From: a bacterium
GTDB lineage: Bacteria > Patescibacteriota > Microgenomatia > Daviesbacterales > UBA10151
NCBI GenBank assembly: GCA_021790255.1
Contig: JAJYIE010000011.1
Location: 1-33,516 of the forward strand
Direction: 5' to 3'
DNA: 33,516 bases
Shown here: piece after piece, positions 6,396 to 13,307 of the stretch
How positions within the stretch are numbered: position 1 is the first letter of the stretch
Layout of the letters: every line of letters starts with the position of its first letter
Made by a program: the position numbers and the translations under genes
Notes under the pieces: generated by a model
Told to the model about the DNA's origin: nothing
Seen by the model: the letters and a program-made list of their open reading frames with translations, nothing else
Databases searched by the model: none

Positions 6396-7118
6396 TCAGT
6401 CGCTGGCAAGTTTGGCCCGGACAATCAGCCGGTTGATAAGCGTGCCCGGGGGATCACATGTCTGCAGGGTCAGCACCGAATCGCTGTATGTGTCCGTTAA
6501 GAAATGCACGTCAGCGGGCTTGGCGATGGTTTTGTCGAAAACGATGTAGTCGTAGCGGCGCCCTTTGTAAAAAAGGATAATCCGATCGTCCAGATCCAGC
6601 TTATTCAACAGAAAGAAGATGGCATTATAACGGACAATATCCCAGGGAGCATCTGTGGAATGGGCAAAAAGGTATATGTTGCCCTTTTGGCCGGGGAAAG
6701 CGGTACCCTTGGCATGAGCCACTCCTTCCATTAAGGCCGGACCATAAACCGCCTCGTTACCGGGATCAACATTAGGAATTACCCGGGCATTAGCCCCGAT
6801 TTTTTCAATGACGATGCCAAAATCTGTAGAAACCGGGATGACGACCTGTTTGCCTCCGTTTTTTATGACATCGGCAAAGCTGTTTTGGGAGTCATCAGTT
6901 TTGGTTCCCTGAGAGGTAACTACATGCGGGACGACGTCCCGGATGCCGAGTATTTGCCGGACGTCGAATTTGACTTCTTCGCTGATGACTGGTTCAGAGG
7001 TCAAAATGATGGTCAAAAGGCCGACCTGAATTAAAAAATAGGCCAGAAAGCGCACCATAAATATCAGTCGGAAACGTCCCGAGCCAAACATGACTTTTAG
7101 CAGGTTAAATTTTACCAT
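6396..7118 (-). CDS. Sortase
   Basis: N-terminal TM; catalytic His in IYLFAHSTDAPW, Cys in VLTLQTCDPPGT, Arg in NRLIVRAKL. Confidence 0.85.
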   Translation of the reverse strand: MVKFNLLKVMFGSGRFRLIFMVRFLAYFLIQVGLLTIILTSEPVISEEVKFDVRQILGIRDVVPHVVTSQGTKTDDSQNSFADVIKNGGKQVVIPVSTDFGIVIEKIGANARVIPNVDPGNEAVYGPALMEGVAHAKGTAFPGQKGNIYLFAHSTDAPWDIVRYNAIFFLLNKLDLDDRIILFYKGRRYDYIVFDKTIAKPADVHFLTDTYSDSVLTLQTCDPPGTLINRLIVRAKLASD

Positions 7119-7158: not shown

Positions 7159-9738
<2,580 letters not shown>

Positions 9739-9744
9739 GACTCT

Positions 9745-11271
9745 TTAAGTTACCTTTTGTATAGTTGCGCTAGTGTTTGACATTTTCATGTGTGATGAAT
9801 TAGCCCGTGTTGTAGCGGTAGGCTGAAGTAAAGAGGCAATGTATGGAGTGTACTGCTGCAGAACGGACAGCAACTGATCTTCGCTGCTCAACTGTGTAGC
9901 TTCCCTGACTAAATTGATTAGTTCGGGCTCTGTAGAGAGCAGCTCAATGATCCGGCCGTGGTTTAACCTGGCAAAAGACTTATCTTTGTCCTGAAAAAGG
10001 TTTGTCAAAGGCAGGGCCAACAGGATAATCTGAAGCTCTCTGGGCAATCTGGTCAGGGGAGGCTGCTTTATCATCTCTTCGATAGCATCCCGCTGATTTA
10101 GGGTGAGTCTGGTAGCGTAAGGAAGCTCAAAACTAAAGCTGCTGACGGTTTCAAGTTGGGCAGCCTCGGCCAAAATTTGCTTAACTCTGGTAGCTAAAGA
10201 GTTTTGGACACGATTTTGAGTCTGCTGGCCGACCCGGGAAACAGAGAGTGACAGATCAATTGCCGGACGCTGGCCCTGGTTAAAAAGTGCTGATCTAAAA
10301 AGCAGATGACCGTCGGTCATGGCCATGATATTGGTGGGAATAAAACCGGTAAAATCATTTAAGTTAGTATCAATTACCGGCAGGGCAGTAATCGATCCGC
10401 CACCGGCCATCGGGTTGAAATTCCCGGCCCGTTCTAAAAGATGCGCATGCTGGTAGAAGATATCCCCGGGGTAAGATTCGCGGCCGGGAGCCCGGTCTCC
10501 CAACAACGCAATCTCCCGGTAAATTTTAGCATGGATACCCAGGTCATCCAGGATTACCAATATATCCTTTCCCTGCGTCTGGAAGTATTCTGCCAAAGCG
10601 AAAGCGGTTTGGGGTGTCAGAAAGATTAAGGGGGCAGGGTCGGAGGAGGAAGCAGCGACAATAATAGTGTAGGGAAGAGCCTGGTTGGTACGCAGGGTAT
10701 CAATGAGGCTTCGGACTTCGGCAATCGGCTTACCGATTGAAGCATAAATGCAAATCACTCCGGTGTTTTTTTGATTAATAATAACATCGATCAGGAAATC
10801 GATTTTACCTGAACGGGGATCACCGATGACCAGCTCCCGTTGTCCTTTACCGATCGGAATGAGGCTGTCAACCAGAATTATGCCGGTCTGAAGCTGCTCA
10901 TTAATAGTTTGCCGGAATTTGATGCCGGGGGCACTACGATCAAAATCAGCGCTTGTTTTACTGCTTTCCTTCGGCAAGATTTTCCCGTCAATGGGGACCC
11001 CCAGGGGATTTATTGCCCGGCCTAAGAGAAATTGCCCGGAAGGAGTGGTAATCTTTTGGCCGGTGCTCCGGAAAAGCTGTCCCGGTTGGCTTTTTCCTTC
11101 GTCTAAAACCAGCGCCTCAACGCTGTCCGGCAGCAGAGCGTTGACCCAAGCCCTGATGCCGTTGTCGCTTTCTATCAGATCATTGATGCGAACAGAAGGA
11201 AGTCCGTTTAAATGGATTAAAAAGTTATTCACGCTGGTAACAAAACCAACTTCCTGGGTTTTTTGCGCCAT
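9745..11271 (-). CDS. atpA: F-type ATPase alpha subunit (degenerate Walker A)
   Basis: PIGKGQRELVIGDPRSGKID, RAPGRESYPGDIFYQHAHLLERAG, DGHLLFRSALFNQGQRPAIDLSLSVSRVG. Confidence 0.92.
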   Translation of the reverse strand: MAQKTQEVGFVTSVNNFLIHLNGLPSVRINDLIESDNGIRAWVNALLPDSVEALVLDEGKSQPGQLFRSTGQKITTPSGQFLLGRAINPLGVPIDGKILPKESSKTSADFDRSAPGIKFRQTINEQLQTGIILVDSLIPIGKGQRELVIGDPRSGKIDFLIDVIINQKNTGVICIYASIGKPIAEVRSLIDTLRTNQALPYTIIVAASSSDPAPLIFLTPQTAFALAEYFQTQGKDILVILDDLGIHAKIYREIALLGDRAPGRESYPGDIFYQHAHLLERAGNFNPMAGGGSITALPVIDTNLNDFTGFIPTNIMAMTDGHLLFRSALFNQGQRPAIDLSLSVSRVGQQTQNRVQNSLATRVKQILAEAAQLETVSSFSFELPYATRLTLNQRDAIEEMIKQPPLTRLPRELQIILLALPLTNLFQDKDKSFARLNHGRIIELLSTEPELINLVREATQLSSEDQLLSVLQQYTPYIASLLQPTATTRANSSHMKMSNTSATIQKVT

Positions 11272-11272
11272 A

Positions 11273-11794
11273 CTATTTTTTATGTCGGTACTCTTCTAAA
11301 ACTTTCAGAATTGCCTGGTGGTTGTCGCTGATTTTTTGCTGCAGCGAGTAATCTTTATAAATACCTTTCCAGGAAAAGGCGGCACCGGCTATAAGATATG
11401 GGTTAATGCGCAGCTCAATTAGAAAATGGCTGCCGAAATCCTGCCGTAGGTAAGCGCCCAAGGTGGAGATTTCCGTTTCCGGAAGCTCAAAAGCCAGGAA
11501 AATGATTAAGGGCTGGATACTTTTAATGTTTTCCTCGGCCCGGGTGAAGATATTATGCAGACTATTCTGGTTAAATCTATTAAAAAGATCTATCGGGAGG
11601 TTGTCCAGCCACTGTTTTTCCCGGACAGAAGCCAGCTGGTACTCGGATTGGCCAGCCTCTTCGGTAGCCTGAAATAATTTATCACTGACGCGCTCTTTTA
11701 AAAGCCTCAGGTACCGCATGGCTGAGGTAGGCGTGAAGCTCTCGTGCAAAATTAAATCAACCAGTTCTTCGGGTGTCATTTTACAATTAGACAA
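11273..11794 (-). CDS. atpH: F-type ATPase delta-like subunit
   Basis: 173 aa; C-terminal INPYLIAGAAFSWKGIYKDYSLQQKI resembles the delta C-terminal motif; position between b and alpha. Confidence 0.68.
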   Translation of the reverse strand: MSNCKMTPEELVDLILHESFTPTSAMRYLRLLKERVSDKLFQATEEAGQSEYQLASVREKQWLDNLPIDLFNRFNQNSLHNIFTRAEENIKSIQPLIIFLAFELPETEISTLGAYLRQDFGSHFLIELRINPYLIAGAAFSWKGIYKDYSLQQKISDNHQAILKVLEEYRHKK

Positions 11795-12470
11795 AGAACT
11801 TCTCTGCCTTAGCTTTTTCCAGTGATTCTTTAATCAGTTCCATATGATCTTTTAACTCCAATTTTTTGGGCAAAACCAGCATCAGAGTTTTTTCCAAAAT
11901 TGCAATAATATTTTCATCCACCAGCATTAACTGCTGGGCTTTGTAGGTATCAATCAGCTGACGGGCAGCCTTGATCTCAAGTTCAATTGAAGTCAGGCTT
12001 TGCTGCTGGGTTTGGGTTAAAAAAGTTGCCAAGTTTTGCTCAAACCGCTCAAACAGATCATTAACCTGCTGCCGGGCAGTTTCTTCAATCCGGGCCTGAG
12101 TCTGCTTGCCAGTGGCAATCAGGTCCTGCAGATATTTGTCATATTGTTTGTTGGCAAGGTCTACCTCATGCTGAAAACTGCCTTCCAATGCCCCCGCCAG
12201 CTGATTAATCCTTTGTTCATAATTGTCTACCAGCCTGCCAGCGTGCTCCTCGCTGCCCTCTACCACTTTCAGGGCGTCATTCTCGGCATTGGTAATAATA
12301 TCATTGGCATTTTGAACTGCCTGATGCAGCAGTTCGATGCTTTTCAGGTGATTTTCTTCCAACACCGGCGGTGGGAACTGGTTGCTCGGTTTGGGACGGG
12401 AAAAGTACTCTTTCAGGAAGAGAACAAAAGCGACTACGGCAACCAGGGACAGCAGGGCAGTTATTGGCAT
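11787..12470 (-). CDS. atpF: F-type ATPase b-like peripheral stalk subunit
   Basis: 227 aa; single N-terminal TM, long charged coiled coil, C-terminal MLVLPKKLELKDHMELIKESLEKAK; 8-nt overlap with the delta gene. Confidence 0.75.
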   Translation of the reverse strand: MPITALLSLVAVVAFVLFLKEYFSRPKPSNQFPPPVLEENHLKSIELLHQAVQNANDIITNAENDALKVVEGSEEHAGRLVDNYEQRINQLAGALEGSFQHEVDLANKQYDKYLQDLIATGKQTQARIEETARQQVNDLFERFEQNLATFLTQTQQQSLTSIELEIKAARQLIDTYKAQQLMLVDENIIAILEKTLMLVLPKKLELKDHMELIKESLEKAKAEKFFV

Positions 12471-12482
12471 ACAATCATCATA

Positions 12483-13307
12483 TCAAATCTTTAAAATAAG
12501 TATGGCAATGGCAATGCCCAATACGATAATTACTATGGTAAACATGAGACCCAGCACAAGCGAGATATATATTGAGACACGGGCCAAGGGGTTACGGCCG
12601 ATTGCCTCCAGTGCTTTGGGAACGGCTCTGGAGAAAGCAATAAGTCCTCCCATGAAAGCAGAAAGGACCAGCAAGGCTGCCAGCAGGTAACGTACTGCCT
12701 GATTAAAGCTATTCGGAGATGGGATTTGGAAAAATGAGAGGGAGCTCAGAGGAGCAAATATTCCGGTGGTAAAATAAGACAGGGGAATTTGCGCATACTC
12801 GATATGTAAAGCCACCGAAACCCGGCCGATGGTAGCTTTCCTGGTCAGTTTTGGGTTAGTGGGGTCCTGGTAACTGATCTGGGCACCCTGTCCATCTTTT
12901 AATCCCTCCAGAGCCCGCCCCAAAACGTAACCGGGCTTGTCGGCCCGTTGCCCTTTACCAGATATGTCTGAAGAAGTGATCAGGTCCCCCGCACTAATCG
13001 GGCCGTTCTCTGTAGTCACATTGACATAGGCCACGCCGTTTCTGGCAATCGGTACTCCTTGGTTATCGTAGCGGCGGTAGATAAGCAGGGAATTATTTTG
13101 GATTACCCCGAACAGATTCATGTCATACGCAGTAGAAGCCCGGGCGATTCCTTTACCGCTGCTGGCACTGACTATATCGCCGTCTGTGGCAGCATGGTCG
13201 CTGACTGTAAAAACATCAGTAACTTCCACGGTGTTTTGGGCGAAACCAGGGGTGGGCTGGAAAATCAGGAACGCCAGAAAGCATAAAATGAGCAGGCGGT
13301 AAAGCAT
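12483..13307 (-). CDS. Signal peptide plus secreted domain fused to an F0 c-like hairpin lacking the ion-binding carboxylate
   Basis: N-terminal signal FLAFLIFQPTPGFAQ, then about 170 aa (TDGDIVSASSGKGI...TTENGPISAGDLITSSD), then C-terminal AFMGGLIAFSRAVPKALEAIGRNPLARVSIYISLVLGLMFTIVIIVLGIAIAILILKI, with the c-subunit loop EAIGRNP between two TM helices. First gene of the ATPase operon. Confidence 0.8.
   Translation of the reverse strand: MLYRLLILCFLAFLIFQPTPGFAQNTVEVTDVFTVSDHAATDGDIVSASSGKGIARASTAYDMNLFGVIQNNSLLIYRRYDNQGVPIARNGVAYVNVTTENGPISAGDLITSSDISGKGQRADKPGYVLGRALEGLKDGQGAQISYQDPTNPKLTRKATIGRVSVALHIEYAQIPLSYFTTGIFAPLSSLSFFQIPSPNSFNQAVRYLLAALLVLSAFMGGLIAFSRAVPKALEAIGRNPLARVSIYISLVLGLMFTIVIIVLGIAIAILILKI

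What the first reader, a model, noticed from the sequence alone, without database searches (positions are those of the whole stretch)
12483..13307. Secreted domain fused to an F0 c-like hairpin that has lost its ion-binding carboxylate
Seen: a 274-aa protein with a signal peptide and an extracytoplasmic region of about 170 aa (TDGDIVSASSGKGI...TTENGPISAGDLITSSDISGKGQRADKPGYVLGRALEG), then a C-terminal two-helix hairpin with the diagnostic c-subunit loop KALEAIGRNP. Helix 2 (RVSIYISLVLGLMFTIVIIVLGIAIAILILKI) and helix 1 (AVRYLLAALLVLSAFMGGLIAFSRAV) contain no Asp or Glu. The position matching E. coli c Asp61 is Leu or Ile depending on loop alignment. Established: that carboxylate is essential for H+/Na+ translocation, and the c N-terminus faces outward, so the added domain is topologically compatible. 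Inference: an oligomeric ring would carry many extracellular domains and could not conduct protons. The secreted domain resembles the repeat-type domains I recall from CPR surface proteins, but this is unverified.
Basis: partly seen in the sequence, partly recalled or inferred. Interest (0 to 1): 0.93.

Follow-up and report, generated by a model that had tools for sequence, protein, structure and literature searches.

The report
F1 motor with ion-dead outer ring
Many uncultured ultra-small bacteria carry a second ATP-synthase-like machine whose membrane ring cannot move ions and instead carries a phage-fibre-like domain outside the cell, so it probably spends ATP to move something on the cell surface rather than to make ATP.

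Summary
The 274-aa protein is a signal peptide, a phage-appendage-like beta domain and a true c-subunit hairpin with the GRNP loop. Ile258 replaces the ion-binding carboxylate. Of 125 distinct homologs none has Asp/Glu at that column; all 17 canonical c genes sampled from the class do. The gene heads a conserved cassette, cfus-b-delta-alpha-gamma-beta-epsilon, without subunit a. The cassette occurs throughout Microgenomatia and in other Patescibacteria and is a lineage separate from the genome's normal F1F0 operon (100/100 support). F1 catalytic residues are invariant. In 20 sampled genomes with neither subunit a nor a canonical c, it holds the only F1 alpha/beta pair. It often sits beside a giant surface protein, and some of these carry the same extracellular domain. 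Best reading: an ATP-hydrolysing, ion-uncoupled F1 machine acting on the cell surface through an ectodomain-bearing ring. Rotation and ring formation are inferred, not shown. The nearest known systems are the mycoplasma type 2/3 F1-like ATPases, which have no recognised c homolog. I found no description of this system in the open papers searched.

The parts
12483..13307 (-). c-like fusion protein, 274 aa: signal peptide + secreted beta domain + c-subunit hairpin
13236..13307 (-). signal peptide (residues 1-24, predicted end ...GFAQ)
   Evidence: sequence by eye; hydrophobic helix 2-16 in the model
12783..13235 (-). secreted beta domain (about residues 25-175), fold of phage head-decoration/appendage barrels; shared with giant surface proteins
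12486..12716 (-). c-like two-helix hairpin (residues 198-274)
12582..12608 (-). loop EAIGRNPLA (residues 234-242), the conserved gamma/epsilon docking loop of c subunits
   Evidence: GRNP 89/89 in the class set
12534..12536 (-). codon of Ile258 at the position of E. coli c Asp61
   Evidence: gapless alignment to canonical c; 0 of 125 D/E
11787..12470 (-). b-like subunit, 227 aa, N-terminal TM helix and long cytoplasmic part
   Evidence: position, TM and family conservation; weak family matches only
11273..11794 (-). delta (OSCP)-like subunit, 173 aa
   Evidence: PF00213 E 0.0021, below cut-off; NCBIfam delta E 0.0024
9745..11271 (-). F1 alpha, 508 aa, Arg finger present, short N-terminus
   Evidence: PF00006 E 5e-64
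8878..9738 (-). F1 gamma, 286 aa
   Evidence: PF00231 E 4e-30
7470..8888 (-). F1 beta, 472 aa, all catalytic residues present
   Evidence: TIGR01039 above cut-off
7159..7473 (-). epsilon, 104 aa, beta-sandwich domain only
   Evidence: PF02823 E 6e-14

Best explanation
The cassette encodes an F1-like ATPase that is no longer coupled to ions. ATP hydrolysis in alpha3beta3 turns gamma/epsilon, which dock through the conserved RNP loop onto a ring of c-like hairpins. The ring has no ion-binding carboxylate and no partner subunit a, so it pumps nothing. Each ring subunit instead carries a phage-appendage-like domain outside the cell, so the machine delivers rotation or strain to the cell surface, probably to giant fibrous surface proteins. 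In most versions b and delta form the stator. Shown: gene order, homologies, intact catalytic residues, loss of the carboxylate, absence of a detectable subunit a, an ancient separate lineage. Inferred: secretion of the domain (from the signal peptide), ring oligomer, rotation, partner and biological task.
For: Hairpin is a c subunit by profile and fold. No D/E at +18 in 125 fusions, against Glu in 17 of 17 canonical c. Docking loop GRNP 89/89. Beta and alpha catalytic residues invariant. Same cassette in 19 of 20 and 59 of 67 neighbourhoods, no a beside it. 20 genomes with the fusion have no a, no canonical c and only this F1 alpha/beta pair. Separate old beta lineage, 100/100. Neighbouring giant HTH-TM surface protein in about 48 of 80 loci, some with the same domain.
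Against: No direct evidence for a ring or for rotation; only a single-chain model was possible. Three loci lack b and delta, so a peripheral stalk is not always present and the anchoring of the F1 head is then unexplained. The window genome has no giant protein with this domain. A very divergent or unrelated membrane stator elsewhere cannot be excluded.
Confidence: 0.6

Rival explanations
1. Stroke-like energiser: ATP hydrolysis cycles strain through the membrane hairpins to reset or release an extracellular binding complex, without continuous rotation, as its authors propose for the mycoplasma type 3 ATPase and MIB-MIP.
For: Same overall design as the mycoplasma type 3 cluster (PMC12994834); versions without b and delta exist, as in mycoplasmas.
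Against: The c hairpin with its docking loop and, in most loci, b and delta are kept, which is the layout of a rotor and stator.
Confidence: 0.2
2. Export or assembly motor: the F1 part helps secrete, extrude or fold the giant surface proteins encoded beside it, comparable in role to type III secretion ATPases.
For: Frequent adjacency to giant type II membrane proteins; alpha and beta also match T3SS ATPase models, but below F-type ones.
Against: F1 alpha/beta/gamma/epsilon plus c, b and delta, not a FliI/SctN type; no export apparatus genes recur beside it; many genomes have giants with the domain but no full-length fusion match.
Confidence: 0.12
3. Ion pump after all: the fusion uses another residue, or is mixed into the canonical c-ring and works with the canonical subunit a.
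For: The loop is nearly the same as in the canonical c, and the window genome has both systems.
Against: No conserved acid in the membrane; the cassette is kept in 20 genomes with no detectable a or canonical c, two of them single contigs.
Confidence: 0.05
4. Decaying duplicate of the ATP synthase operon with no present function.
For: Divergent b and delta with weak family scores.
Against: Open frames, invariant loop and catalytic residues in many genera and several classes; kept alone in reduced genomes.
Confidence: 0.02

Closest known systems
Mycoplasma type 3 'F1-like X0' ATPase (MSC_0618-0624; MMCAP2_0575-0581), needed for MIB-MIP function (PMC3369863, PMC12994834)
   Same: Extra seven-gene F1-like cluster beside a normal F1F0; alpha, beta, gamma, epsilon; ATPase without a recognised ion path; one member with signal peptide, large domain and two C-terminal TM helices; linked to surface proteins
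   Different: Those papers report no homologs of a, b or c and no delta (membrane parts: a 12-TM protein and a 2-TM protein). Here c, b and delta homologs are recognisable, and there is no 12-TM protein.
Mycoplasma mobile type 2 / G1-ATPase twin motor (MMOB1610-1670; PMC8406192, PMC11864180)
   Same: F1-like ATPase thought to pass force to surface proteins; alpha without the N-terminal helix that binds the peripheral stalk
   Different: G1 forms dimers and chains through GliD and an extended beta; the window beta has no such extension (472 aa)
F-type ATP synthase (F1F0) of the same genome, contig C38
   Same: alpha, beta, gamma, b, delta and a c hairpin with nearly the same loop
   Different: Canonical c has Glu at +18, no secreted domain, and subunit a is present
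N-type (alternate F1F0) ATPase
   Same: Second F-type operon in a genome
   Different: N-type models score far below cut-off for all subunits; N-type has a and an ion-binding c
Phage head-decoration, head-fibre and preneck-appendage domains
   Same: Fold of the secreted domain (Foldseek probability 1.00)
   Different: Low identity, loose overlap in the PDB hits; here fused to a membrane hairpin

Membership tests
ATP synthase subunit c (ATP-synt_C, PF00137) | Two-helix hairpin of the c fold with a polar [R][NQ]P loop | tested here: met
   Fold 1.4 A, target TM 0.86; profile hits only c chains in the PDB; GRNP loop
ATP synthase subunit c (ATP-synt_C, PF00137) | Score above the Pfam cut-off | tested here: not met
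   No hit for the window protein at E<=1; 11 of 78 relatives at E<=0.1, best 0.0015; 0 of 20 fusion-only genomes ring
ATP synthase subunit c (ATP-synt_C, PF00137) | Ion-binding Asp/Glu in helix 2 | tested here: not met
   Ile258; 0 of 125 homologs
ATP synthase subunit c (ATP-synt_C, PF00137) | Oligomeric ring that rotates with gamma | not testable with these tools
   Only single-chain structure prediction available
F-type ATP synthase (F1F0) | F1 head with catalytic residues | tested here: met
F-type ATP synthase (F1F0) | Subunit a with the ion half-channels | tested here: not met
   None in the cassette; the only a in the genome is in the canonical operon; none at all in 20 fusion-bearing genomes
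F-type ATP synthase (F1F0) | Peripheral stalk b and delta | tested here: met
   Present but divergent in most; absent in L111, L123, L178
Mycoplasma type 2/3 F1-like ATPase | alpha/beta above the NCBIfam type-specific cut-offs | tested here: not met
   MMOB1660 336 of 600, MSC_0619 274 of 520, MSC_0618 365 of 570, MMOB1670 347 of 850 bits
Mycoplasma type 2/3 F1-like ATPase | 12-TM membrane protein in the cluster | tested here: not met
   No such gene within the contiguous cassette
Mycoplasma type 2/3 F1-like ATPase | Protein with signal peptide, large domain and two C-terminal TM helices | tested here: met
   Architecture of the fusion; homology to MSC_0620 not tested
N-type ATPase | Above cut-off to alt_F1F0 models | tested here: not met
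   alt_F1F0 alpha 377 of 750, beta 420 of 752 bits
Type III secretion / flagellar ATPase | Above cut-off to SctN/FliI models | tested here: not met
   Far below cut-offs

The most novel reading that the evidence does not exclude
A widespread class of rotary machine in Patescibacteria in which an F1 ATPase spins an ion-dead c-ring studded with phage-fibre-like domains on the outside of the cell, driving giant surface fibres for attachment, motility or host interaction; in some lineages it is the only rotary ATPase left.
Probability: 0.35. Interest if true: 0.97.

Novelty: new variant of a known kind. Interest (0 to 1): 0.88.

Why it matters
If right, rotary ATPases have a second way of life outside mycoplasmas: mechanical output to the cell surface through a c-ring that has given up ions. 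It gives a homology-based picture of how torque might cross a membrane, the missing step in the mycoplasma gliding and MIB-MIP systems. It also bears on ATP synthase annotation in Patescibacteria: some genomes scored as having an incomplete synthase may carry this non-bioenergetic machine. And it is a concrete candidate for how cells that live on other cells could power contact with their hosts.

Tried and rejected
Chance or assembly error: rejected. A carboxylate elsewhere in the membrane: rejected; 4 of 125 have D/E at +9 or +12 near the cytoplasmic end, none conserved. Subunit a nearby, or in trans as a general rule: rejected. N-type ATPase: rejected by family scores. Sortase as a conserved partner (one lies downstream in the window): no recurrent sortase family among the neighbours. 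Viral carriage of the fusion: no relative found in the viral contigs. Phage family names for the secreted domain ('head scaffolding', 'cement') are weak resemblances, not functions. Direct comparison with the mycoplasma X0 proteins: not possible, no sequence at hand. Literature: no paper describing this system found; most subscription papers and preprints are outside the library, so absence is not proof.

Full report
What is in the window. The finding's ORF, 12483-13307, is on the minus strand and encodes 274 aa. It is the first gene of a tight minus-strand cluster: c-like fusion, b-like (11787-12470), delta-like (11273-11794), alpha (9745-11271), gamma (8878-9738), beta (7470-8888) and epsilon (7159-7473). 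Pfam recognises alpha, beta, gamma and epsilon firmly, delta weakly, b hardly at all, and the fusion protein not at all on its own. NCBIfam gives only weak c-subunit matches at residues 200-272. No subunit a lies in the cluster.

The genome has a normal ATP synthase too. The assembly (941 kb, 45 contigs, 91.6% complete) has one Pfam-detectable subunit c and one subunit a, both on contig C38 in an operon a-c-b-delta-alpha-(275-aa gene)-gamma-beta. Its c reads ...KAVEAIGRNPEASNKILPIMLLGMAFTEAIAIYALVIAFVK, with Glu at +18 from the loop Pro. The window protein aligns to it without a gap (KALEAIGRNPLARVSIYISLVLGLMFTIVIIVLGIAIAIL): score 80 against a shuffle maximum of 52 in 2000. Ile258 takes the Glu position. 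So the window holds a second, separate F1-like system.

The hairpin is a c subunit that lacks the ion site. A profile of 78 homologs matched ten PDB sequences at E<=1, all of them c subunits. The same profile finds the genome's own canonical c at E 8.9e-6. The AF2 model (mean pLDDT 91.8) matches c subunits at 1.4-2.2 A with target TM up to 0.86. Across 125 distinct fusions the +18 residue is I 45, V 24, L 21, A 15, F 9, G 5, T 4, M 1, S 1, never D or E; D/E at +9 to +29 occurs in 4 sequences, at +9 or +12 only. In contrast, RNP in the loop is kept in at least 121 of 125. In the 89-member set GRNP, A at +2 and I at +6 are invariant. All 17 canonical c sequences sampled in the class keep Glu at +18. 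In F-ATPases that loop docks gamma and epsilon (established knowledge). Selection has kept the docking face and discarded the ion site.

The secreted domain. Residues 30-172 are a beta domain predicted with high confidence. Foldseek places it with phage head-decoration and head-fibre proteins (8pkh, 6qvk) and preneck-appendage barrels (probability 1.00); the PDB overlaps are loose (rmsd 7-10 A), while the best predicted viral ones are 2.3-3.6 A. The same domain occurs inside proteins of about 900-4400 aa.

Conservation and distribution. 174 of 240 genomes of the class match the protein at E<=0.01; this count mixes full fusions with giant proteins that share only the domain. A scan of GTDB genome contigs kept 80 loci, mostly from Daviesbacteria, Levybacteria, Gottesmanbacteria, Woesebacteria, Roizmanbacteria and other Microgenomates, a few labelled Sungbacteria, WWE3 or Saccharibacteria (these labels were not checked). 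Nineteen of the first 20 neighbourhoods carry fusion-b-delta-alpha-gamma-beta in that order, 18 of them with epsilon. Of 67 loci with at least 6.2 kb downstream, 59 have all six partners. Some loci in the two sets are the same contigs. Other classes of the phylum have the cassette as well. A beta tree of 60 rows separates cassette and canonical beta by a 100/100 branch, so this is an old separate lineage, not a recent decay.

It looks catalytically intact. The beta Walker A lysine and threonine, the Glu and Arg of the GER motif and the Walker B Asp are invariant in 65 of 65; the alpha Arg finger in 73 of 73. Epsilon is short (104 aa in the window), too short for the usual inhibitory helices (inference). 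Alpha has a shortened N-terminus (median 13 residues before the reference column, canonical 24); the M. mobile G1 alpha also lacks this helix (PMC11864180).

It stands alone in some genomes. 82 of 240 class genomes have no detectable subunit a. I took 20 of these that carry the fusion: none has a Pfam-detectable c, and each has one alpha/beta pair beside the fusion (split over contigs in two) plus, in most, one weaker match that is probably transcription factor Rho (the Rho reading is inference). Sixteen of the 20 are at least 90% complete; G033 and G227 are single contigs. So ion coupling through a borrowed subunit a cannot be the general role. G033 and the Woesebacteria loci L111 and L123 even lack b and delta.

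Link to giant surface proteins. In about 48 of 80 loci a neighbouring gene encodes a protein with an N-terminal MerR-type HTH, usually a TM helix, and a very long remainder; it lies downstream on the same strand (Daviesbacteria) or upstream and divergent (Levybacteria, Woesebacteria, WWE3) (many are cut by contig or locus ends; HTH confirmed by Pfam in the two tested). A few carry the secreted domain within the part read. In G033 the gene abutting the fusion encodes 1501 aa with a Peptidase_S74 tail-fibre chaperone domain. In the Sungbacteria locus L121 the fusion itself is 580 aa, with an HTH-like start and a TM segment by eye before the secreted domain. The window genome shows no such neighbour and no second protein with this domain, so the association is common, not universal, and relatedness of the loci was not corrected for.

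Mechanism. Best supported: ATP hydrolysis drives gamma/epsilon and with them an ion-dead ring bearing ectodomains; the output is mechanical and outside. The ring, the rotation and the target are inferred. Stroke-like energisation, as its authors propose for the mycoplasma type 3 ATPase and MIB-MIP (PMC12994834), is the main rival.

Relation to known systems. [quoted passage not shown] Those papers found no a, b or c homologs. The present cassette has recognisable c, b and delta, and its alpha and beta fail the type 2/3 model cut-offs. It works like them at most by analogy; it is not a member on the tests done. A survey of rotary ATPases took alpha, beta, gamma, a and c as the sign of a functional enzyme (PMC11738941), and another reports that 30% of the CPR sampled lost genes for a canonical synthase (PMC10656485); I found no mention of this cassette in the passages read. 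[quoted passage not shown] whether that bears on this cassette was not tested.

Noticed in passing
L137:6741-7565 (G000 contig C38): A 275-aa gene sits between atpA and atpG of the canonical ATP synthase operon; no Pfam match at E<=0.001. By eye it resembles a pyruvoyl-dependent arginine decarboxylase, unverified.
   Followed up: partly
L168, L169, L170, L171: In one family of another class (f118) two different fusion paralogs flank a single cassette.
   Followed up: no
L111:5628-10181, L123:453-4956, L178:3431-8091: Five-gene version of the cassette (fusion, alpha, gamma, beta, epsilon) without b and delta.
   Followed up: partly
L121:7876-9615: Sungbacteria fusion of 580 aa that begins with an HTH-like segment and a TM helix before the secreted domain (no Pfam match).
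   Followed up: partly
L042 (G157:C3:11000-28000): Lone full-length fusion gene with no cassette genes found in the 17 kb around it.
   Followed up: no
window 6396-7118, minus strand: Sortase gene directly downstream of epsilon on the same strand; not a recurrent neighbour elsewhere.
   Followed up: partly
L188 (G007:C1): Canonical operon with two adjacent c genes, both with Glu at +18.
   Followed up: no
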